NCBI GenBank assembly: GCA_025998575.1
Contig: BNWD01000021.1
Location: 1-13,201 of the forward strand
Direction: 5' to 3'
Source of the DNA: Alphaproteobacteria bacterium
Lineage (GTDB): Bacteria; Pseudomonadota; Alphaproteobacteria; RUG11792
DNA length: 13,201 nt
Shown here: one piece after another, positions 141 to 13,201 of the stretch
Layout: each line of letters opens with the position of its first letter
How positions within the stretch are numbered: position 1 is the first letter of the stretch
Program-made: the position numbers and the translations under genes
The notes under the pieces: model-generated
Told to the model about the DNA's origin: nothing
The model's database searches: none
What the model saw: only the letters and a program-made list of their open reading frames with translations

Positions 141-311
141 TGACAAATAAATATCTTTGTGAGCGTAGTGAAAATTAACGGAATATTAATGCCAATGTGA
201 TATGCATAAGCTTATGCTTAAAGCATAAAGAGAATGAGTTAAGGATGGAGGCCTTTAACATAAAAGCATTATAGATAGTTGTTAACAGAACTGTGAATTT
301 CCTGTGAAAAA
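141..311 (+). repeat. Intergenic repeat copy A, palindrome module
   Basis: First of three copies of a non-coding unit (A here, B from 448, C from 1254). Blocks in order: TGACAAATAAATATCTTTGT; TTAA-N7-TTAA (175-189); TGTGATATGC; the palindrome TTATGCTT-A-AAGCATAA (212-228); GGATGGAG; CTTTAACATAAAA; GTTAACAGAACTGTGAATTT followed by CCTGTGAA. The last two blocks contain CTGTGAA twice, 11 bases apart. Copy A lacks the short hairpin insertion found in B and C. Only here is the palindrome extended by a second perfect one, GCATAAGCTTATGC, which overlaps it. No open reading frame is conserved between copies, so this looks like a regulatory, RNA or MITE-like element. Boundaries are judged by eye. Confidence 0.85.
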
Positions 312-359
312 GGTTGATTATTAATCAATAAGAGGGAAGAATATTAGTAAACTTCTTCT

Positions 360-418
360 GAGTTTCTTCTTGATTTAAATCTCTATCAATTACGCATGAG
401 CTGCTTATCAAAATCATA
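360..418 (+). repeat. Intergenic repeat copy A, distal module
   Basis: The distal block has a core of TTGATTTAAA, CTCTATCAATTACGCA and GAGCTGCTTATCAAAA. It recurs at 1650-1694 (copy C) and, more diverged, at 12711-12780 (copy D). Copy B lacks it. The varying distance from the palindrome module (about 60 bp in A, 200 bp in C) shows that the composite repeat tolerates insertions and deletions between its blocks. Confidence 0.7.
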
Positions 419-447
419 TATGGCCCACACCAAGCATATATAACTCT

Positions 448-645
448 TGACTTAAAAATATTTTTGTGAAAGTGTTGGGAATTAACGGAATATTAATGCA
501 AATATGATATGCTAAGCTTATGCTTAAAGCATAAAGAGAAGGAATTTGGTAATTCCCAGAGGATGGATGGAGTTCTTTTCCATAAAATTATTAAAAAAGT
601 GTTAACATAACTGTTAATTTTCTGTAAAAAAAAACGAATTCATAA
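448..645 (+). repeat. Intergenic repeat copy B, palindrome module
   Basis: Second copy of the unit. It has TTAA-N7-TTAA at 482-496, the palindrome TTATGCTTAAAGCATAA at 518-534, a perfect 6-bp hairpin with a TGGT loop (541-556, GGAATT/AATTCC), GGATGGATGGAG, and TTAA-N7-TTAAC at 591-606. It then follows GAATTCATAAAT, which matches copy D (GGATTCATAAAT). It is more diverged than A and C in its last block (ACATAACTGTTAATTTTCTG) and has no distal module. Confidence 0.82.
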
Positions 646-730
646 ATGTTAAGTGAAAAATATAATCAAAAACTATTGTAAATAGTTGGCGATACTATAA
701 ATAATAAAGTATGTGCAAAATTAATTACAC

Positions 731-820
731 ATGAATGAGCTTTATTTAGCTAAAGCTATGTCTCTTGCGGAAGAGCGTTTCAGCAGAACCGTAACTAACT
801 GTAATTCATTCACGTTCTAA
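731..820 (+). CDS. Doubtful 29-residue ORF in a structured segment
   Basis: ATG at 731 to TAA at 820 would encode 29 residues beginning MNELYLAKAMSLAEERFSR, a protein-like amphipathic stretch. There is no Shine-Dalgarno sequence. The same bases can fold as a branched RNA: TGAATGA (732-738) pairs with TCATTCA near 806-812, enclosing hairpins GCTTTA/TAAAGC (739-756) and CTCTT/AAGAG. It may be a gene remnant, a leader peptide or a non-coding RNA. No family is recognised. Confidence 0.2.
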   Translation: MNELYLAKAMSLAEERFSRTVTNCNSFTF

Positions 821-847
821 CACTGTCTCACGATTCTTCTCAGAAAC

Positions 848-1057
848 TTATTTTTGATAGGTTTGAGTTTGTAGATAGTTTGGTGGTTTTGGCGTGATGA
901 ATTCAAACATATTTCCTATATCAAAAAAGCACAGACTAGCTGTGACAGAAGCCCGTGTTTCTAAGCCCTCTTTGAACCTCTCGTAACTTGTTTGGTTATG
1001 AACGATGTTCGTTTCCAACATAGTTACTTTTTCGGTTAATTTCGATAAAATATTCAT
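848..1057 (-). CDS. Small hypothetical protein, 69 residues
   Basis: This is the best-supported small gene in the leading intergenic region. Reading leftwards, the ATG is preceded by AAGGAGAAAGAAA, a strong Shine-Dalgarno sequence at normal spacing, and by a TATAAT-like -10 (plus-strand 1077-1082). The product starts MNILSKLTEKVTMLETN, a predicted amphipathic helix, possibly a coiled coil, in roughly the first 35 residues. A more hydrophobic middle (SLCFFDIGNMFEF) and a polar tail follow. There is no signal peptide, no cysteine pair and no recognised domain. A terminator lies just upstream (1106-1132), so the gene probably has its own transcript. No function is assigned. Confidence 0.5.
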   Translation of the reverse strand: MNILSKLTEKVTMLETNIVHNQTSYERFKEGLETRASVTASLCFFDIGNMFEFITPKPPNYLQTQTYQK

Positions 1058-1105
1058 TTTCTTTCTCCTTTTATTAATTATAAACTTCTTTGATTAAATT
1101 TTGCG

Positions 1106-1132
1106 AAAAACATCAGCAAAACCCTGCTGATG
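1106..1132 (-). terminator. Rho-independent terminator, minus strand
   Basis: CATCAGC (1111-1117) and GCTGATG (1126-1132) form a perfect 7-bp stem with an 8-base loop. On the minus strand it is followed directly by TTTTT (plus-strand A-run 1106-1110). It would stop leftward transcription entering from 1135-1850, just before the promoter and start of the 69-residue gene. It could also act as an attenuator if that gene is transcribed from further upstream. Confidence 0.6.
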
Positions 1133-1161
1133 CCTTATGATATCACACAGATTATGTGAGG

Positions 1162-1470
1162 GTCAACTAAAAAGTCAGGCTGATTCTAGGGATTTGGGGT
1201 TTTGATAAATTTATTAGTCATAGATTAGTAACTATTTCGTAAGTCTATTGAGCTGACAAATAAATATCTTTGTGAAAGTGTTGAAAATTAACAGAATATT
1301 AATGCAATTGTGATATGCTAAGCTTATGCTTAAAGCATAAAGAGAAGGAGTTAGGTAATTCCCCGAGGAGGGAGGGGGTTAGGGATGGAGTCCTTTAACA
1401 TAAAAACATTAATAAAGTGTTAACAGAACTGTGAATTTCTTGTGAGAAAAACTGTTAATAACTATTTTGA
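1162..1470 (+). repeat. Intergenic repeat copy C
   Basis: This is the longest copy. It begins with GTCAACTA (1162-1169), then TTTTGATAAATTTATTAGTC, a proximal block shared with copy D at 12593-12630. From 1254 it follows copy A closely: TGACAAATAAATATCTTTGT, TTAA-N7-TTAA (1288-1302) and the palindrome (1324-1340). A hairpin GGAGTT/AATTCC (1347-1362) keeps the copy B stem with one G-T wobble. Next come a G-rich tract (1365-1390), CTTTAACATAAAAACATTA, TTAA-N7-TTAAC (1409-1424) and the AACAGAACTGTGAATTTC block. Its distal module lies separately at 1650-1694. Confidence 0.85.
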
Positions 1471-1546
1471 ATATAACAAGCCTAAAAAGCATAATTAATA
1501 AAATAGGATATTTTTACAATATGAAATTACTGTTGCCCATACAAAT

Positions 1547-1699
1547 ATGATAGCTAAAGAATATCCTGATATAAAAAATAAGGTTAATGTCAGTGACACT
1601 ACAATAAAAAAGTATATACAAAATCAATTACAAGAGACGGATTCTCTCATTGATTTAAAACTCTATCAATTACGCAGGAGCTGCTTATCAAAACAGTAG
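1547..1699 (+). CDS. Doubtful 50-residue ORF, possible gene remnant
   Basis: ATG 1547 to TAG 1699. The first 33 codons read like real coding sequence (MIAKEYPDIKNKVNVSDTTI, then a lysine-rich helix), and the frame is open upstream for about 16 further codons without an ATG. The last third is supplied by the distal repeat module (1650-1694), so the present C-terminus looks accidental. No ribosome binding site is seen. It is most likely a fragment of an older gene cut by the repeat. No family is recognised. Confidence 0.2.
   Translation: MIAKEYPDIKNKVNVSDTTIKKYIQNQLQETDSLIDLKLYQLRRSCLSKQ
1650..1694 (+). repeat. Intergenic repeat copy C, distal module
   Basis: TTGATTTAAAACTCTATCAA followed by TTACGCAGGAGCTGCTTATC closely matches the distal module of copy A at about 370-412 and more loosely copy D at 12733-12778. 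About 200 bp of unrelated sequence, including the possible gene remnant, separates it from the main part of copy C. Confidence 0.75.
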
Positions 1700-1737
1700 T
1701 TGATGGGCAATGCCGTCATGATCATGTTTTATTCATT

Positions 1738-4546: not shown

Positions 4547-6208
4547 TTGATTGCAAAAATAGAGATCGATGGAAAGGAATACGAAGTCAAAAGGGGCGAT
4601 AACCTGCTGAGCGTCGCCCAAAAACTCGGCGTATTTATTCCGCATCTGTGCTATTTTTCTAAGCTCTCTCCCTCCGGAAAATGCGGAATATGCGCTGTCG
4701 AAATAAACGACAAAGCCATAGAACTCAGTTGCTTATTGCCTGTTGAAAATGGGCTTCGAGTTGCCACTCACAATGAAAAAATTCAAAATTTTAGGAAAAA
4801 AAACATAAACAGAATATTAAGAATGCATAACATAGAATGCTGCAAATGTTCGAAAAATGGATTCTGTAGTTTGCAAGGCGCAACAGCAAGCATATACAGG
4901 AAAGAGAAGAATATCGATAATTTTAAAGGCAATACAAACAAAGCTCTCCCAATAAAAATAAATGATGATATAATATACGATAAATCGAAATGCATATTTT
5001 GTATGCGTTGCGTTAAGTTCGCAAATGAAATATGCGGAAAAAACATTGAGTCTCCAGAAGATCTTCGAAATATGAAAAACAATGATTTTATTGGAAACCT
5101 TGTCGATCTCTGCCCAACAGCCGCTCTCAATCAAAGCAATATTAATGAGCAAAATTCGCTTTTGGACTCTGAATATATAGAAACATTCAGTATTTCGAAT
5201 GTCTTCATGCAGCCAATAACTGCCTTCTCTTCGAATAATCAAATAATAAAAGTATCTGCTACCGAGCATTTTATAGACGACAAAACTAGGTTTTTGCACA
5301 AAGACTTGAATAATTTGAGTTATAAATTCGACAACGAAAAATACAAAGAAATTATAGAAAAATTAGCTGAAAAGATTAGCGAAAATAACGATAAAAAGTG
5401 CCTATTTATTATTGGCGATAACATTGATATTGAGTCATTTTTCTATATCAAATACTTGCAAAAACACAAAAACAACGTAACGATATCTATCGATGACTTC
5501 AATATACCTAGGTTGTTCTTAGAAAACTCGCTGAAAAATATAGATAAATTAATACTTGCCGATGCAGTTATAATAGTCAACCCATTGAGTATAAACTTAG
5601 TTCAGGCGCTTCTAACGACAATAAAAAACCTTAAAGATAAGATTATAATCAATATTGATGAGCTTGAAAATTTCGCAGAGAACAACAAGCAAAACAGCAA
5701 ACTTTTTTCATACAAAAGACCCGCGTTAGTTTTATTTAGCAATTTCTTTGAGAGCGCGAATGTTCCTGAGAATATTATTAGCGACTTCAAGAAAAAGTAT
5801 GAAGAAGCATATTTGACAACCATAGAAACATTTGTCATTCCGCCTAGCCTATCGCTGATATTAAGCAATAATTTGCCTGAGTTTTCGCCATTGAATTGCT
5901 TAAATGAAGATTGGAATTTTATTTGTCAAATCGGAGATATATCGAAAAATATTGAGCTAAAACACGATCTATACGTTCAAAACGCAGCTTTTAGCGAAAA
6001 TATTCCAGCTCCTCACTTCTTGCAAGATTCTTGCCTTTACCTAAATATATTCGGAAAAACAATAAACACAAAAACTCTTATTTCAACTGAACTCAAACCT
6101 AACAGGGAGTTTCTGTTTGATTTAATGAGCAAAATTTTTAAAGATGAATTTTCTGACATTAATACGAAAATCCAAAATGAAATCAAAGAGAGATTTCTTA
6201 ATACATAA
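4547..6208 (+). CDS. nuoG: NADH-quinone oxidoreductase subunit G, compact form
   Basis: NuoG is the large iron-sulfur subunit of the peripheral arm of respiratory complex I, passing electrons from the NADH site toward quinone. All expected N-terminal ligands are present. The 2Fe-2S N1b site has Cys35, 46, 49 and 62 (C-x10-C-x2-C-x12-C). N5 has His94, Cys98, 101 and 107 (HxxxCxxCxxxxxC). N4 has Cys149, 152, 155 and 189. The extra N7 motif of some bacteria is absent, as in alphaproteobacteria and mitochondria. The rest is the degenerate molybdopterin-oxidoreductase-like domain, recognisable at TDDKTRFL-type (here IDDKTRFLHKDL) and C-terminal FGKTINTKTL positions. At 553 residues it is clearly shorter than the roughly 680-700 usual for alphaproteobacteria, the loss being in that domain. 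The start is TTG at 4547, overlapping the ribosome binding region in the end of secA; the first residues (MIAKIEIDGKEYEV) fit the family. No other nuo genes are adjacent. Confidence 0.93.
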   Translation: MIAKIEIDGKEYEVKRGDNLLSVAQKLGVFIPHLCYFSKLSPSGKCGICAVEINDKAIELSCLLPVENGLRVATHNEKIQNFRKKNINRILRMHNIECCKCSKNGFCSLQGATASIYRKEKNIDNFKGNTNKALPIKINDDIIYDKSKCIFCMRCVKFANEICGKNIESPEDLRNMKNNDFIGNLVDLCPTAALNQSNINEQNSLLDSEYIETFSISNVFMQPITAFSSNNQIIKVSATEHFIDDKTRFLHKDLNNLSYKFDNEKYKEIIEKLAEKISENNDKKCLFIIGDNIDIESFFYIKYLQKHKNNVTISIDDFNIPRLFLENSLKNIDKLILADAVIIVNPLSINLVQALLTTIKNLKDKIIINIDELENFAENNKQNSKLFSYKRPALVLFSNFFESANVPENIISDFKKKYEEAYLTTIETFVIPPSLSLILSNNLPEFSPLNCLNEDWNFICQIGDISKNIELKHDLYVQNAAFSENIPAPHFLQDSCLYLNIFGKTINTKTLISTELKPNREFLFDLMSKIFKDEFSDINTKIQNEIKERFLNT

Positions 6209-8114: not shown

Positions 8115-9221
8115 ATGATAAGGAACGCTCTTGAAAAACTACGATTTTTTCCCATTTTTCCGTTTTTTATTATATTATTAATCACAGTTTTCGCGTTTTT
8201 GATTCTATATTCGATAAGCGGAGGTAGCTTTTTTCCGTTATGTTTCAAGCAGTTGGTCCGCCTAATCTTGGGGCTTTTCGTGCTTTTCGTCGGCTTTTTT
8301 ATTAACCAAAATTTTTGGAAAAAATACGCCTATGTTATCTTTTTCATCTGCATATGCGCGATCATAGCCGTCTCCATAGTCGGCAAAATCTCGATGGGAG
8401 CAAAGCGTTGGCTAGACTTATATTTCTTCAATTTTCAGCCGTCAGAACTGATGCGCATATCGCTTGTTCTTGCTCTCGCCAAATATTTTTCAACAAGATC
8501 AGAAGACGAAATCAGAAAAACGACTACTCTCATATTCCCGTTATTGATAATTACGCTTCCGATGTTCTTCGTTTTGACGCAACCCGATCTTGGCACTGCA
8601 GCGCTGTTTTTTCTTGTTGGAGCATCGATATTCTTCGCTTGCGGGGTCCAAATATGGAAGTTTTTCGTCGTTTTGCTCGCAGGAATAGCTTGCACGCCAA
8701 TTATTTGGAATATGCTCCACGACTATCAAAAAAACAGAGTTCTGATGTTTTTATCTCCTGAGCTCGATCCAAACGGAGCTGGATATCATATAATTCAATC
8801 GAAAATAGCGCTTGGATCCGGCGGCTTTTTCGGGAAAGGATTCATGAACGGAACGCAATGCCGCCTGAATTTCCTGCCAGAAAAACAGACAGATTTCGTG
8901 TTCGCGGCCCTCGGCGAAGAATTCGGCTTCCTCGGTTGCTTCGTCTTAATCTTCCTATACTCACTTTTGCTCCTATACAACATCAACGTCACAATAAAAA
9001 CAAGGCAAACGTTCAGTAGAATCGTCGTCTTCGGCTTAAATTCCATGCTGTTCTTCTATATCTGCATCAACATAGCCATGGTCTGCGGCATCCTGCCAGT
9101 CGTCGGCATACCACTGCCATTCTTCTCATACGGCGGCAGCGCGCTATCAATACTAATGTTCGCTCAAGGCCTCATCTTCGCTACCGATATCCTGGAAAAA
9201 ACCAAACAAAGACTCATCTAA
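8115..9221 (+). CDS. rodA: Rod-shape-determining protein RodA (SEDS glycosyltransferase)
   Basis: RodA polymerises lipid II into glycan strands for cell elongation, working with a class B PBP2 in the inner membrane. The 368-residue product has the SEDS pattern of about ten membrane segments. Motifs seen: GAKRWLDL (95-102), FQPSEL (107-112), TQPDLGTA (155-162), the large periplasmic loop with DPNGAGYHIIQSKIALGSGG, and KQTDFVFAALGEEFGFLG with Asp260 matching the catalytic Asp of E. coli RodA (262). Near the end come LPVVGIPLPFFSYGGSALS (residues 327-345). RodA is preferred over FtsW because of length and the QTDF loop. ATG 8115 lies at a usual N-terminus; AAGGA occurs just after it and does not serve an in-frame start. 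No mrdA or mre genes are adjacent. The last 92 bp of coding sequence before the final codon's third base are duplicated at 12148-12239. Confidence 0.95.
   Translation: MIRNALEKLRFFPIFPFFIILLITVFAFLILYSISGGSFFPLCFKQLVRLILGLFVLFVGFFINQNFWKKYAYVIFFICICAIIAVSIVGKISMGAKRWLDLYFFNFQPSELMRISLVLALAKYFSTRSEDEIRKTTTLIFPLLIITLPMFFVLTQPDLGTAALFFLVGASIFFACGVQIWKFFVVLLAGIACTPIIWNMLHDYQKNRVLMFLSPELDPNGAGYHIIQSKIALGSGGFFGKGFMNGTQCRLNFLPEKQTDFVFAALGEEFGFLGCFVLIFLYSLLLLYNINVTIKTRQTFSRIVVFGLNSMLFFYICINIAMVCGILPVVGIPLPFFSYGGSALSILMFAQGLIFATDILEKTKQRLI
9126..9217 (+). repeat. 92-bp direct repeat, upstream copy (3' end of rodA)
   Basis: This segment is identical over all 92 bases to 12148-12239. It starts exactly at the codon for RodA Ser338 and ends two bases into the final Ile codon. 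The base after it differs (C here, A in the other copy), yet both copies still encode Ile-stop (ATC TAA here, ATA TAG downstream). The two copies bracket the surface-protein gene and its promoter, like attachment-site repeats around an inserted element. Confidence 0.97.
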
Positions 9222-9255
9222 CATCAAAAAGATTTTTCTAACTTTTAGTCGAGAA

Positions 9256-9284
9256 TTGTAAAAAACTTTGAGCTGCTATATAAT
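9256..9284 (+). promoter_or_regulatory. Promoter of the surface-protein gene
   Basis: TTGTAA (9256-9261), a 17-bp spacer and a perfect TATAAT (9279-9284) make a strong sigma70-type promoter. It lies in the 98-bp gap between the rodA stop and the ATG at 9320, inside the repeat-bounded segment, so the cassette carries its own promoter. AAGGAAG at 9285-9291 is too far upstream of the ATG to be its ribosome binding site. Confidence 0.7.
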
Positions 9285-9319
9285 AAGGAAGAGACTGTAT
9301 CAGAAAAATTATTTTAACT

Positions 9320-12142
9320 ATGAATATAAAAAATATATTGTATGCAATTATTATTGCTAGTAATAATGTTTATGCGACAAGTGGAGGTATGAAGGTTGGC
9401 ATTGGATTTGGCGCTGATTTTTCGAAAGCTAAGGTTAGCGTTAAGAAGGAAATTCCGAAAGAGCTCAAGCGATTAATTGCTTTGCTTAAGGCCAACAACA
9501 GAAAACTCGTCGAGGATAGTGCCGAACACAAAACCAATTCTTCAAGTAAAAAAGAGCACCGTTACGCTGACGACGCGAAGAATGTTTGCAAAATAACACT
9601 CGATGATTTGTGGGAAGTTGCTGAATGCGATAAAATTGCCACATATCTTAGCAATTGTTTTGGGCGCTTTATCGAATATGATATATTAGGAAATAAGAAG
9701 TTGATGGAGGCGCTTTCATCTGAATCTTCTGGTGCTCATGGGCGTGCTCCAGGTTCTCCTGCTGCAATTGCTGCAAAGATTTATGATTCAGACAAATTAC
9801 TTGGGGAACTTTTCAGAATTATTGCTGAACAAGTTCCTGCGACTAAAAATAAAAAATGGTTTAACTCACCTTTGAGAAAATATTTTGGCAAAAAGACAGC
9901 ATCTGACTCAGGCAACTCATTTTCAGCTATATTGAAACCAATTTTTAAGCAAATTATAAGAGCAGGGAACGGGAAACAAATATTGAGGTTGTTTGTTAAT
10001 AAGTTTGAGTATTTATACAAAGATTCTAATGATGGAAAAATGCTTGGAGAGTACAGTGTATTCTATTGCAATTTATTTAAACCAAAAAATGAAAAAGTTC
10101 TTGGTGTTTTGACTCAACATTCTGAATCAACAGATGGAGAGAGTCTTCTGTTGGATGATATAATTGATTTTTGCCATTGCAATTTAAATAAATATAACTT
10201 GGGGCTTTCGATAATAAAAAATTCTAAAGTAACAGATGAGCAGCTTCGCGAGAATGTTTGGAAGATATTTGATGGGCCGCTGATCACGGAAAATTTATCT
10301 TTTGCTATTGCTGATATTGTTTTCCATATGAACACGACATCTGTTGATTTTCTAAAGAATTACTTTAAAGGAAATAATCGAGATGTTGAAGATGGTTCGC
10401 TTATAGCTATTGCAGAAAGTAATAACGAGCGTGAGGTGGGTCTTAAGAAATTGTTTGATATTTTGAATAATCTTGATACTAGCTTACGAAATCAAGAATG
10501 GGCAAAAAAGTCTTTTAGTGAAGAGAACTTTGCATCTGTTGAAGCATTATCTGAAAAATTAAAACCAGTTGTTGAAAAGATTTTTAAAGATGGAAATGGC
10601 AATTGCATTTTGAATTTATTTGTCCAAAACCACGATGGAACTTATTCTTTTGAATATAAGAATCAAGAATATTTTGATTTTACTTCTTATTTAACGCGCT
10701 TTGATTTGCTTTATATGCCATATAAATGTTCCCTTGATATATTGAAACCTCTGTCCACTATGAAAGAAAGAAGAACGTGGAAGAAACTGGATGGTGATAA
10801 CTTAGTAAAAAAATTGTGCCAACTTTATTCAAGGATGCTTGTAAAAAACATTATGTACAATAAATCCATTGTTAACACACTAAAAGATTATTATTCTGGC
10901 GCTGGAGGAGGTGAATCTATTGGGGCAGCTGGCTCTCCTGCTGCTTTTGCCCTTAAATATCCTTATAAAAACAGAGGGTATGGAACTATTGGAGCATTTT
11001 TTAATAAAATACTAAAGTTATGTCCTTCCGTCAATAAAGAAAAATGGTTTAAGGCTCCGCTTGAATATAATTTTGGAAAATCAAGTTTTGAAGAAGGTGT
11101 AAATGAACTCGCGAAATGCCTTAGCCGTTCTTTTAAAATAATCTTGAAAAAAGGCAAAGGTGACCAGTTGCTGTCTATTTTTGCTAGAGACATAGATGGT
11201 TCTTATTATTCTGATTTATTCACATTTTGCAACAAAGATTATGTAGAAAATAACAATGAGATAGATGTGAAACTGGAGCCTTTTTGTCTGGGGGCACGAT
11301 TCGAGCACAATAGCGAAGAAGCAGAAACTCTTAATTTGGCTAACAGTTTTTTTATCGCATATAAACCTATTCCAGTTAAATCTGACTCAAAAGCATCTCA
11401 TGAAAATACTAAGCAACACGACAAACGCAAAACTCTAAATAGTGCAAGGTCAAGAAAATTTACTAATAAAAAACATTGGAACCCAGAAAAAAAGCTGCAT
11501 AATTATTATGATGTTCGTGTTGACACTGTTTCGACAAGCAAGAAGGCGCCGATGGGAAATGTTTCTGGTTTAATTGGATATGGATGGATACTAGATAAAT
11601 GGTTTTATGAAGCTGATGGATATTTTTCTGCCTGTTTTGGAAAAGCAAAAATTGGCACTTTTAGCGAGATAAATTCTGCTAAAACTGATAAAGAGAAAAT
11701 TTCCTCAAAAGATACGCAATTTAGAGTCTCGAATCCTTGGCGTTTCGGATTAATGGGCTCAGCTAGTTATTTTTTTAATTCTAACATAGCAATAGGTTTT
11801 GCTATTGGATTTGAGTTGCGAAATATAAAACTCAATTCTGCAGGTTATTTGGCCTCGATTAAAAAATCAGACGCTTTTTACAATAAATATGCCAAGATCG
11901 TCAACAAAAATCTATCTGACAATGATAAAATAACCCTGATAGATTCAACTTCAGACATTAAAAACTTTAGTGAAACAAAATTGGGATATGTGGTAGGACC
12001 GAAACTCACTATTCCATTTTTGCAAAATAACTTATTCTCGATCTGCTTCCTAATAGGCTCTAAAACAAAAGTTAAACACTTAAACATCTCGGCTACTCAA
12101 AAATCTTTCAGAATCCAAGCTGCATTGCAAAGAGTTTTCTAA
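9320..12142 (+). CDS. Outer-membrane beta-barrel surface protein with threefold repeated domain
   Basis: 940 residues, no named family recognised. Residues 1-19 (MNIKNILYAIIIASNNVYA) form a signal peptide. Residues 22-43 (GGMKVGIGFGADFSKAKV) look like a first beta-strand. Residues about 90-680 contain three diverged copies of a helical domain. The shared core in each is K/EW-F/A...ILKPI-like helix, then a G-N/K-G turn and ILxLF: copy 1 at 178-226 (KKWFNSPLRKYFGKK, GNGKQILRLFV), copy 2 at 392-446 (QEWAKKSF, GNGNCILNLFV) and copy 3 at 574-634 (EKWFKAPLEYNFGKS, GKGDQLLSIFA). Copies 1 and 3 also share a Gly-rich GSPAA motif (145-149, 538-542). Residues 690-740 are basic and polar. Residues 745-940 give about seven amphipathic strands and end in ALQRVF, the C-terminal Phe typical of Bam-assembled proteins. 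The gene lies between the two rodA 3' repeats with its own promoter. It is probably an adhesin or host-interaction protein; the function is unproven. Confidence 0.75.
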   Translation: MNIKNILYAIIIASNNVYATSGGMKVGIGFGADFSKAKVSVKKEIPKELKRLIALLKANNRKLVEDSAEHKTNSSSKKEHRYADDAKNVCKITLDDLWEVAECDKIATYLSNCFGRFIEYDILGNKKLMEALSSESSGAHGRAPGSPAAIAAKIYDSDKLLGELFRIIAEQVPATKNKKWFNSPLRKYFGKKTASDSGNSFSAILKPIFKQIIRAGNGKQILRLFVNKFEYLYKDSNDGKMLGEYSVFYCNLFKPKNEKVLGVLTQHSESTDGESLLLDDIIDFCHCNLNKYNLGLSIIKNSKVTDEQLRENVWKIFDGPLITENLSFAIADIVFHMNTTSVDFLKNYFKGNNRDVEDGSLIAIAESNNEREVGLKKLFDILNNLDTSLRNQEWAKKSFSEENFASVEALSEKLKPVVEKIFKDGNGNCILNLFVQNHDGTYSFEYKNQEYFDFTSYLTRFDLLYMPYKCSLDILKPLSTMKERRTWKKLDGDNLVKKLCQLYSRMLVKNIMYNKSIVNTLKDYYSGAGGGESIGAAGSPAAFALKYPYKNRGYGTIGAFFNKILKLCPSVNKEKWFKAPLEYNFGKSSFEEGVNELAKCLSRSFKIILKKGKGDQLLSIFARDIDGSYYSDLFTFCNKDYVENNNEIDVKLEPFCLGARFEHNSEEAETLNLANSFFIAYKPIPVKSDSKASHENTKQHDKRKTLNSARSRKFTNKKHWNPEKKLHNYYDVRVDTVSTSKKAPMGNVSGLIGYGWILDKWFYEADGYFSACFGKAKIGTFSEINSAKTDKEKISSKDTQFRVSNPWRFGLMGSASYFFNSNIAIGFAIGFELRNIKLNSAGYLASIKKSDAFYNKYAKIVNKNLSDNDKITLIDSTSDIKNFSETKLGYVVGPKLTIPFLQNNLFSICFLIGSKTKVKHLNISATQKSFRIQAALQRVF

Positions 12143-12147
12143 CTTTG

Positions 12148-12239
12148 TCATACGGCGGCAGCGCGCTATCAATACTAATGTTCGCTCAAGGCCTCATCTT
12201 CGCTACCGATATCCTGGAAAAAACCAAACAAAGACTCAT
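12148..12239 (+). repeat. 92-bp direct repeat, downstream copy (rodA 3' fragment)
   Basis: Perfect duplicate of 9126-9217, beginning 5 bp after the surface-gene stop. It encodes RodA residues 338-368 in an open frame ending ATA TAG, but has no start or upstream rodA sequence, so it is an untranslated remnant. The sequence beyond it (12243 onward) probably represents the original DNA downstream of rodA before the cassette arrived. Confidence 0.97.
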
Positions 12240-12376
12240 ATAGCCTCCGTCGCTGCAATGTTATTAAACAACCGGAAGAGAGCGCAGAGATTGGACACCA
12301 GAAAATATTTATTGTTTTCGCGCTATGTTAAAATGCTAAATGGCAATCTACACACTATTCACAAAAAAGTAGGGAG

Positions 12377-12407
12377 AATTGTCTTTTCTGGAAGATTAAC
12401 AATTTTT
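12377..12407 (+). terminator. Possible terminator downstream of the rodA fragment
   Basis: AATTGT (12377-12382) pairs with ACAATT (12399-12404), with an inner TCTT/AAGA pairing, and is followed by TTTTT (12403-12407). It may be the ancestral rodA terminator, now serving the surface-protein gene, for which no nearer terminator is visible. The stem is AT-rich and so weak. The stretch 12243-12376 shows nothing else recognisable. Confidence 0.35.
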
Positions 12408-12421
12408 AAACAAAAAAATTC

Positions 12422-12601
12422 GTGGAGTTAGACATAGTTTTTATACAAACTTTGTTCTTCTTTAAAACTCTTGCTTTACAAATTTCACAACATTTAACTA
12501 TAACTCTCAGCAAAATAATATTAATATCAGCAGCCATCCTCACATCAACTTTTTCTATCAACTATGAACTCAATAAAAAGGTGCATACGGCTGTCAACTA
12601 G
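12422..12601 (+). CDS. Doubtful 59-residue hydrophobic ORF
   Basis: GTG 12422 to TAG 12601. The product is markedly hydrophobic, with one likely membrane helix in the middle (ITLSKIILISAAILTSTF) and a short polar end (NYELNKKVHTAVN). There is no Shine-Dalgarno sequence, and an AT-rich region can yield such frames by chance. Its stop codon lies inside the GTCAACTA motif that opens repeat copies C and D. No family is recognised. Confidence 0.22.
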   Translation: MELDIVFIQTLFFFKTLALQISQHLTITLSKIILISAAILTSTFSINYELNKKVHTAVN

Positions 12602-12780
12602 ATGGCTTTGATAAATTCATTAGTCATAAGCCTTAGCACCATAAAAACATTATAGAAGCGTTAACAGAACTGTGAATTTCCTGTAAAAATATGGATTCAT
12701 AAATTATGAATGAGTTTCTTCTAAATCTCTTCTTGATTTTAAACTCTGTCGATTGTGACTGAGCTGTTTACCAAAACCAT
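12593..12780 (+). repeat. Intergenic repeat copy D, lacking the palindrome module
   Basis: This copy keeps the proximal block (GTCAACTA, TTTGATAAATTCATTAGTCA), jumps directly to CCATAAAAACATTATAG and GTTAACAGAACTGTGAATTT, then has GGATTCATAAAT (shared with copy B) and the distal module (12711-12780; TTGATTTTAAACTCTGTCGA...GAGCTGTTTACCAAAA). The segment from TGACAAATAA through GGATGGAG, present in A, B and C, is missing, which marks that segment as a separable unit. Confidence 0.75.
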
Positions 12781-12845
12781 AACTCGTTGATAATCACGTC
12801 CGGTTTGATCCATTTTCTTAACGACTATAACTGGTGGTTGCCCAT

Positions 12846-13100
12846 ATGCAAAGACTGTCGGATAACGAGTCTTACATGTTTAGTTTCGACCGATTAAAAG
12901 ACTTTGTTAATAAATTTCCTGCTGATGATGAATTTCGATGTCCGGTTTTAATTTTGGGTCTTCCTGGTTTTTCACAAGAAGCTCGTGCTGACGCTGAAGA
13001 AAAATTTAAATCCTCGGGCCATGCCAAGAATGCACAAATATTTGATGGAACCAAAAAGAAGCTTGACGACTGGATAGAAAAAGGTTGTCCAGACCTCTGA
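12846..13100 (+). CDS. Small hypothetical protein, 84 residues
   Basis: ATG 12846 to TGA 13100, followed at once by a terminator. GTG 12834 would add four residues; an in-frame stop lies just upstream, and no good ribosome binding site is seen for either start. Codon use looks like real coding sequence. The product is soluble and charged: MQRLSDNESYMF, then a helix (FDRLKDFVNKF), a hydrophobic strand and loop (PVLILGLPGFS), and a helical tail with KKKLDDWIEKGCPDL. No signal peptide or recognised domain. It begins right after repeat copy D, so it could be the 3' part of a longer gene truncated at the repeat. Confidence 0.5.
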   Translation: MQRLSDNESYMFSFDRLKDFVNKFPADDEFRCPVLILGLPGFSQEARADAEEKFKSSGHAKNAQIFDGTKKKLDDWIEKGCPDL

Positions 13101-13116
13101 TAACAAACAATAAGCA

Positions 13117-13144
13117 TCTCTATTTTTTAATAGAGAGGTGTTTT
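13117..13144 (+). terminator. Rho-independent terminator
   Basis: TCTCTATT (13117-13124), loop TTTT, AATAGAGA (13129-13136), then GGTG and a TTTT run (13141-13144). It lies 16 bp after the stop of the 84-residue gene, supporting that gene as a transcribed unit. Confidence 0.6.
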
Positions 13145-13165
13145 AGTTTCGATATATTTTCGCCA

Positions 13166-13201
13166 AAAATCAACGGAATGTTAACTATTTAGAGATAAAC
13201 T
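13166..13201 (+). repeat. Possible edge of a further intergenic repeat copy
   Basis: AAAAATCAACGGAATGTTAA resembles AAAATTAACGGAATATTAAT of copies A and B. The following sequence (CTATTTAGAGATAAACT) does not match, and the window ends, so this may be a diverged copy or coincidence. Confidence 0.25.

What the first reader, a model, noticed from the sequence alone, without database searches (positions are those of the whole stretch)
9126..12239. Surface-protein cassette bounded by perfect 92-bp duplications of the rodA 3' end
The sequence shows two identical 92-bp segments, 3,022 bp apart. The first completes rodA and the second is an orphan fragment 5 bp after the surface-gene stop. The bases after the core differ but both give Ile-stop (ATC TAA and ATA TAG), so the reading frame of RodA survives with either end. 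This resembles site-specific elements that enter the 3' end of a gene and restore it, or recombination with another allele that swapped in a rodA-end plus surface gene. No integrase is encoded inside, so the enzyme would have to act in trans or the event was homologous recombination. If general, the end of rodA may be an expression or exchange site for variable surface genes.
Basis: partly seen in the sequence, partly recalled or inferred. Interest (0 to 1): 0.78.

Follow-up and report, generated by a model that had tools for sequence, protein, structure and literature searches.

The report
Surface gene bracketed by rodA-end copies
In an uncultured Holosporales-type bacterium a surface-protein gene sits between two copies of the tail of the essential gene rodA, probably a scar of local DNA duplication; similar scars around secreted-protein genes were found in a second genus of the family, which hints at a way these bacteria gain and lose such genes.

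Summary
In detail: 9126-9217 and 12148-12239 are identical over 92 bp; the first completes rodA, the second is an orphan 5 bp after the stop of a 940-aa secreted, probably beta-barrel protein. Chance is excluded and an assembly error unlikely (assembly word length 127 exceeds the repeat). A site-specific cassette is not supported: the rodA tail occurs only twice in the assembly, the one clear paralog of the gene lies elsewhere, and only two Xer-type recombinases were found. No close relative is available (full-length RodA at most 68% identical), so an empty site could not be tested. But the scar is not unique. Orphan copies of gene tails follow 5 of 245 genes tested here and 4 of 133 in another genus (G028), against 1 of 789 in three other samples. 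In G028, ruvB and gyrB show the same anatomy: gene tail, secreted-type gene(s), tail copy 7-15 bp after their stop. At gyrB tails are 94-95% identical, units 62%. Best reading: old local duplications with a breakpoint in the neighbour's 3' end, tails then kept alike by recombination; surface genes could come and go without breaking the essential gene. How the units arise is not settled.

The parts
8115..9221 (+). rodA, 368 aa, intact; its 3' end is the first repeat copy
   Evidence: TIGR02210 392 bits, cut-off 336.7
9126..9217 (+). repeat copy R1: tail of rodA, ending 4 bp before the end of its stop codon
9228..9245 (+). inner direct repeat D1, 17 of 18 identical to 12129-12146
   Evidence: 0 of 300 shuffles of the spacer reach its score
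9256..9284 (+). promoter-like TTGTAA-17-TATAAT ahead of the surface gene, in the spacer and not in the repeat (consensus match only)
9320..12142 (+). 940-aa protein with signal-peptide-like start and C-terminal predicted beta-barrel ending in F; no relative in 58 other genomes searched
12129..12146 (+). inner direct repeat D2 (3' end of the surface gene)
12148..12239 (+). repeat copy R2: orphan rodA tail, followed by an in-frame TAG
12240..13201 (+). flank after R2 up to the contig end, unrelated to the flank after R1; holds a dispersed intergenic repeat (about 12634-12795) and an 88-aa ORF (12834-13100)

Best explanation
The two rodA tails are the scar of a local duplication event: a stretch beginning inside the 3' end of rodA and taking in a surface-protein gene was duplicated or re-joined so that a second rodA tail now lies just behind that gene. 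rodA stays whole because the breakpoint leaves a full 3' end and stop in front. The unit after R2 has been lost, or lies beyond the contig end 962 bp on. The tails stay identical because they are recent or because recombination keeps copying one onto the other, while flanks and surface genes diverge freely. Recombination between the tails could delete or multiply the surface gene without harming rodA. Shown: the anatomy; the same anatomy at ruvB and gyrB in another genus; at gyrB, tails far more alike than the units between them; a recA gene. Inferred: tandem duplication as origin, gene conversion as keeper, gene turnover as consequence.
For: Orphan tail copies are recurrent and not tied to one gene: 5 of 245 genes in 643 kb of this genome, 4 of 133 in G028, 0 of 66 in G009, 0 of 232 in 31 other family stretches, 1 of 491 in 63 stretches from outside the family. 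Own genes hit include rodA, rpoB and an ABC transporter gene; tolB, whose downstream DNA is a patchwork of its own pieces, and an OmpA-like gene appear. In G028 ruvB and gyrB tails bracket secreted-type ORFs, copies starting 15, 7 and 13 bp after the ORF stop. At gyrB the [tail-spacer-ORF] units align at 62% over 692 bp, proteins 37%, while tails are 94-95% alike and the two orphans share 57 of 57 bp: tandem duplication with the tails kept alike. gyrB shows one tail in 8 of 8 other genomes where it was found, out of 11 others searched. The genome is rich in a dispersed repeat and has recA.
Against: At rodA the flanks after the two tails are unrelated and no second surface gene follows R2 in the 962 bp left, so a simple tandem duplication needs a later loss or replacement. 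The inner repeat gives the order R-D-gene-D-R, which one tandem duplication does not make. Copies starting 5-15 bp after an ORF stop, and homology ending near the donor's stop, look more regular than random breakpoints. Gene conversion is inferred from one locus. A secreted-type ORF is known between the copies at 1 of 5 own genes (a 116-aa ORF between rpoB copies was not examined), and one of the four G028 genes is part of an ordinary array of paralogs. With looser criteria the excess over relatives shrinks: 3'-tail copies 9 of 344 here, 8 of 326 in pooled family stretches, 6 of 615 outside, and copies of gene starts placed upstream are no commoner here (5 of 346, 5 of 341, 8 of 587).
Confidence: 0.55

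Rival explanations
1. Recombination with another strain: incoming DNA carrying a rodA end plus the surface gene joined by homology at rodA on the left and without homology on the right (or as a circle by a single crossover), leaving the recipient's own rodA end as R2.
For: Both tails end in an immediate in-frame stop (ATC TAA, ATA TAG), as two real gene ends would; the ABC-transporter and ruvB copies also get their own stop within 1-2 codons after homology ends. Four of six differences before the break in the ABC pair are synonymous. Flanks are unrelated.
Against: A donor identical over 92 bp but with unrelated DNA from the stop onward is unusual. No strain of the species is available. gyrB in G028 looks like tandem duplication, not import.
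Confidence: 0.22
2. Integrative element in the icd/e14 manner: a recombinase acting in trans inserted a small element at the rodA 3' end, which brings its own tail.
For: The product has the expected geometry; in E. coli e14 insertion after icd codon 362 leaves a 165-bp duplicated 3' end (PMC11148124, passages seen).
Against: No recombinase in the window; only two PF00589 genes found in the genome held, both best matched by Xer-type models; tails of different genes are involved in different genomes; the ABC and tolB scars hold no ORF of 100 aa or more; the inserted gene matches no PHROGs family and no viral contig.
Confidence: 0.06
3. Insertion of the surface gene as a unit that leaves a long target-site duplication (here 92 bp), perhaps from an RNA copy, since tail copies begin 5-15 bp after an ORF stop.
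For: No ORF related to the bracketed one was seen after the last tail at rodA, ruvB or gyrB, though the rodA and ruvB copies lie 962 and 216 bp from contig ends and an unrelated 255-aa ORF follows at gyrB. G028 has a reverse-transcriptase gene.
Against: No reverse transcriptase found in this genome (63.5% complete), G009, G011 or G023; no transposase or terminal repeats in the window; gyrB units share spacer as well as ORF.
Confidence: 0.07
4. The orphan tail is a working 3' end (Rho-type terminator) for the surface gene and is kept by selection.
For: In this genome third codon positions before the end of transcription units are C-rich and G-poor (skew -0.256 in 130 terminal against +0.050 in 75 internal genes); the tail has 27 C to 16 G; rho is present.
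Against: The C-rich composition is inherited from rodA; the surface gene's own last 180 bp already have 36 C to 25 G; G028 shows only a weak effect.
Confidence: 0.05
5. Assembly chimera.
For: A metagenome-type, fragmented assembly with no reads at hand.
Against: Repeat (92 bp) is shorter than the assembly word length (127; 21 exact end overlaps); the same anatomy recurs in another assembly.
Confidence: 0.05

Closest known systems
Prophage e14 / icd in E. coli (3'-end integration that restores the gene)
   Same: Gene with complete 3' end in front, orphan 3' copy behind the insert, both in frame (165 bp there, 92 bp here)
   Different: No phage genes and no integrase found, a single cargo gene; tails of several unrelated genes carry the scar in this genome and in G028
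Tandem arrays of secreted or outer-membrane protein genes in obligate symbionts (recalled)
   Same: Fast-diverging secreted genes repeated between direct repeats, amplified by unequal recombination
   Different: The repeat that anchors the array is the coding tail of a neighbouring housekeeping gene, and at gyrB the tail is more conserved than the genes
Antigen expression sites with gene conversion, e.g. msp2/p44 (recalled)
   Same: Surface gene beside conserved flanks
   Different: No cassettes with the same flanks found in this assembly; the clearest paralog is 38% identical and elsewhere
Partial (3'-end) tandem gene duplication
   Same: Orphan gene ends behind an intact gene, as at rpoB and the ABC gene here
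   Different: At rodA, ruvB and gyrB a secreted-type gene lies inside and the copy begins 5-15 bp after its stop

Membership tests
Integrative element at a gene 3' end | duplicated 3' end that restores the reading frame | tested here: met
Integrative element at a gene 3' end | recombinase gene in the element | tested here: not met
   the only long ORF between the copies is the 940-aa gene, without family match; only two PF00589 genes in the genome held, Xer-type
Integrative element at a gene 3' end | empty site in close relatives | tested here: inconclusive
   22 of 23 other family genomes searched have a rodA 3' end without a second copy above 45% identity, but the closest full-length RodA is 67-68% identical
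Tandem duplication array | direct repeats bracketing the gene | tested here: met
Tandem duplication array | second copy of the bracketed gene | tested here: not met
   none in the 962 bp after R2, where the contig ends; met at gyrB in G028
Tandem duplication array | homology continuing into the spacer after the repeat | tested here: not met
   rodA: alignment reaches about 4 bp past the stop; met at gyrB (27-54 bp past the stop, and 62% over the whole unit)
Transposon insertion | terminal inverted repeats and transposase, short target duplication | tested here: not met
   one weak inverted pair in the window, not at the borders; no transposase match among the six window ORFs scanned
Surface-antigen expression site | donor cassettes elsewhere sharing the flanks | tested here: not met
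   rodA tail only twice in the assembly; paralog pieces on C53 without rodA
Outer-membrane beta-barrel protein | signal peptide and C-terminal barrel ending in an aromatic residue | tested here: inconclusive
   signal-like start by a crude hydropathy test and final F; AlphaFold model of the last 251 residues mean pLDDT 68, mostly strands; best PDB match OmpX E=0.002, none at 0.001; Pfam OMP_b-brl_2 E=0.01, below its cut-off

The most novel reading that the evidence does not exclude
Bacteria of this family repeatedly carry lineage-specific secreted-protein genes between copies of the 3' tail of an essential neighbour (rodA, ruvB, gyrB, perhaps uvrD), the tail copy starting a few bases after the secreted gene's stop. 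The tails act as recombination anchors that let these genes be multiplied, lost or swapped while the essential gene is always restored: a gene-end-anchored turnover system made of host sequence only, without a dedicated recombinase.
Probability: 0.2. Interest if true: 0.72.

Novelty: new variant of a known kind. Interest (0 to 1): 0.48.

Why it matters
If gene tails of essential genes anchor arrays of fast-changing secreted proteins, a small genome with few mobile elements could still diversify its host-facing proteins safely. It also gives a sequence signature (secreted ORF between two copies of the upstream gene's tail) that can be counted in any genome.

Tried and rejected
Conserved rodA expression site: rejected, no second tail above 45% identity in 23 other family genomes searched with the tail. 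One apparent orphan tail in G024 is a rodA cut by the contig end. Homologs of the surface protein: only itself among the 7996 scored candidates of the protein collection, none in viral contigs, none in 58 other genomes. The 36-base core was absent from viral contigs. RodA: some partial alignments reach 73% identity over 73% of the length, full-length ones 68% (best 120 of 8000 listed). Ancestral order at ruvB and gyrB could not be read from relatives because downstream DNA is unrelated between species. A tandem unit in G011 (L065) looked alike but is a pair of paralogous genes with tandem repeats. Inverted end copies on C7 and C8 touch contig ends and were set aside as assembly overlaps. Weak hits not followed: three fragments (38-44%, E 0.03-0.05) in G003, G005 and G012 and a gyrB-tail-like match on another G028 contig (52%, E 0.25). 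Looser scan: 3'-tail copies 9 of 344 genes here, 8 of 326 pooled family, 6 of 615 outside; opposite-strand control 1, 2 and 0; upstream copies of gene starts 5 of 346, 5 of 341, 8 of 587. The same scan gave 7 of 172 and 8 of 169 in G028, 0 of 82 and 0 of 90 in G009. Many hits outside this genome were long alignments of 57-91% that look like paralogous genes (checked only for L065) or were 53 bp or shorter, so the stricter is quoted (genes of 200 aa or more, copies at least 80% and 40 bp, copies inside an ORF over 150 aa dropped). Literature searches with few or no relevant hits; passages of PMC11909080 were seen and not used. No claim of absence from print is made.

Full report
What is there. 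The window is a whole 13,201-base contig (G000:C21) of a fragmented genome of 855,653 bases in 171 contigs, 63.5% complete. The nearest named relatives are records called Holosporales bacterium; that these bins come from termite guts is recalled from their labels, not from a call. Shuffled windows reach at most 18 bp. The first copy completes rodA, 368 aa. The second begins 5 bp after the stop of a 940-aa ORF and also ends in an in-frame stop. The flanks outside the repeat are unrelated apart from a few bases.

Is it an assembly error? Among exact repeats of 60 bp or more in the 63 stretches I held, 21 are exactly 127 bp and all of these touch contig ends, which marks an assembly with word length 127. 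A 92-bp repeat is resolved at that length. No reads were available, so this is strong but not final.

What the bracketed gene is. The protein starts like a secreted protein by a crude hydropathy test, has no family match at cut-off and found only itself among the scored candidates of the protein collection. Its last 200 residues are modelled as a mostly stranded domain with moderate confidence (mean pLDDT 68, three sequences); the best PDB matches are mostly outer-membrane barrels such as OmpX, E=0.002, none reaching 0.001. A 38% paralog, in pieces and cut by the contig end, lies on C53 beside another gene, and a weak one on C33. A promoter-like site lies between the repeat and the gene (consensus only).

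Is it a cassette site? The rodA tail occurs only twice in the assembly. Of 23 other family genomes searched with the tail, 22 carry a rodA 3' end and none has a second copy above 45% identity. Only two tyrosine-recombinase genes were found; their best models are a general tyrosine-recombinase subfamily and XerC, both below the strict XerC and XerD cut-offs.

The scar is not alone. I took 63 stretches of this genome, 643 kb, and searched for gene tails copied downstream on the same strand. By the stricter criteria 5 of 245 genes of 200 aa or more have such an orphan tail: rodA, rpoB, a double ABC transporter gene, and two others. The tolB end, cut by its contig, is followed by a patchwork of its own pieces, an OmpA-like gene by a diverged copy of its end, and uvrC has copies of its start in front of it, the mirror case (uvrC named by recall). 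The same count is 4 of 133 in G028, 0 of 66 in G009, 0 of 232 in 31 other family stretches, and 1 of 491 in 63 stretches from outside the family. One of the four in G028 belongs to an array of paralogs. Samples differ in size and contig length and genomes in quality; with looser criteria the contrast with relatives is small (9 of 344 here, 8 of 326 pooled family, 6 of 615 outside), the difference being mainly that the others' hits look like paralogous genes or are short.

The same anatomy in another genus. In G028, ruvB is followed by a 258-aa secreted-type ORF and, 15 bp after its stop, by a 182-bp copy of the ruvB tail with its own in-frame stop, 216 bp from the contig end. gyrB is followed by a 173-aa secreted-type ORF, a tail copy after 7 bp, a related 191-aa ORF, and a third tail after 13 bp; an unrelated 255-aa ORF comes next. 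Copies of the uvrD tail lie ahead of two ORFs that face it and look secreted by eye, one copy inside the annotated front of its ORF. At gyrB the units align at 62% over 692 bp and the proteins at 37%, while tails are 94-95% alike and the two orphans are identical over 57 bp. gyrB shows a single tail in 8 of 8 other genomes where it was found, out of 11 others searched. In a wider test, ORFs with flanking direct repeats that start within 25 bp of their stop number 9 of 189 in G028, 2 of 409 here, 2 of 340 in other family stretches, 0 of 96 in G009 and 2 of 668 outside; several of these look like ordinary tandem paralogs or noncoding repeats.

Reading. gyrB shows what I think happens: a stretch that starts in the tail of a housekeeping gene and includes a secreted gene is duplicated in tandem; units diverge, tails stay alike, most simply because recombination keeps copying between them. 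rodA would be an older or further reduced case, in which the unit after R2 was lost or lies beyond the contig end. The four other own genes show that tail duplication also happens without a surface gene just ahead of the copy, so decay and repeat-driven instability may be enough; this genome carries an intergenic repeat with about 70 matches and only about 60% of the fetched DNA lies in ORFs of 120 aa or more.

What does not fit. The flanks of the rodA tails are unrelated, the inner 18-bp repeat gives the order R-D-gene-D-R, tail copies start very close to an ORF stop, and homology tends to end near the donor's stop. In-frame stops just after the break at rodA, the ABC gene and ruvB look like two real gene ends and keep import from another strain alive as a rival.

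Score. I rate it above an ordinary duplication and well below a demonstrated exchange system.

Noticed in passing
63 stretches of G000 (643 kb): Third codon positions in the last 150-180 nt of genes at the end of transcription units are strongly C-rich and G-poor (skew -0.256, n=130; down to -0.48 at 30-60 nt before the stop, n=109) but not in genes followed closely by a co-directional gene (+0.050, n=75; p about 1e-8). It stops at the stop codon. Absent in G009, weak in G028 (p 0.008) and in stretches outside the family (p 0.002), not significant in pooled family stretches. It looks like Rho-utilisation sites inside coding ends; rho is present.
   Followed up: partly
window 141-1700 and 12624-12795: Dispersed intergenic repeat family, 70 matches in the assembly including itself, 105 hits by a looser search with none inside ORFs, in either orientation; partial copies lie ahead of secA.
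   Followed up: partly
G024:C12, G032:C98, G034:C37, G036:C53: Of 34 relatives' contigs examined, four end inside rodA at residues 325-339, near where the repeat begins here, and six more end within 600 bp after rodA. It could reflect unresolved repeats at the rodA end.
   Followed up: no
L065:2850-4830: In G011 two paralogous secreted-type genes are separated and followed by arrays of a roughly 55-bp tandem repeat (period judged by eye).
   Followed up: no
G028, loci L301, L302, L308, L310, L311, L318: A family of secreted-type ORFs shares a conserved first 25 residues or so with the 255-aa ORF behind gyrB, with diverging bodies.
   Followed up: no
L115:14841-15143: Outside the family, a 100-aa ORF that looks like a GIY-YIG protein (recalled motif) is flanked by 93-bp direct repeats at 97%.
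   Followed up: no
window 4547-6208: NuoG-like ORF of 553 aa matches only the front part of the NuoG model, well below cut-off (141 of 470 bits).
   Followed up: no
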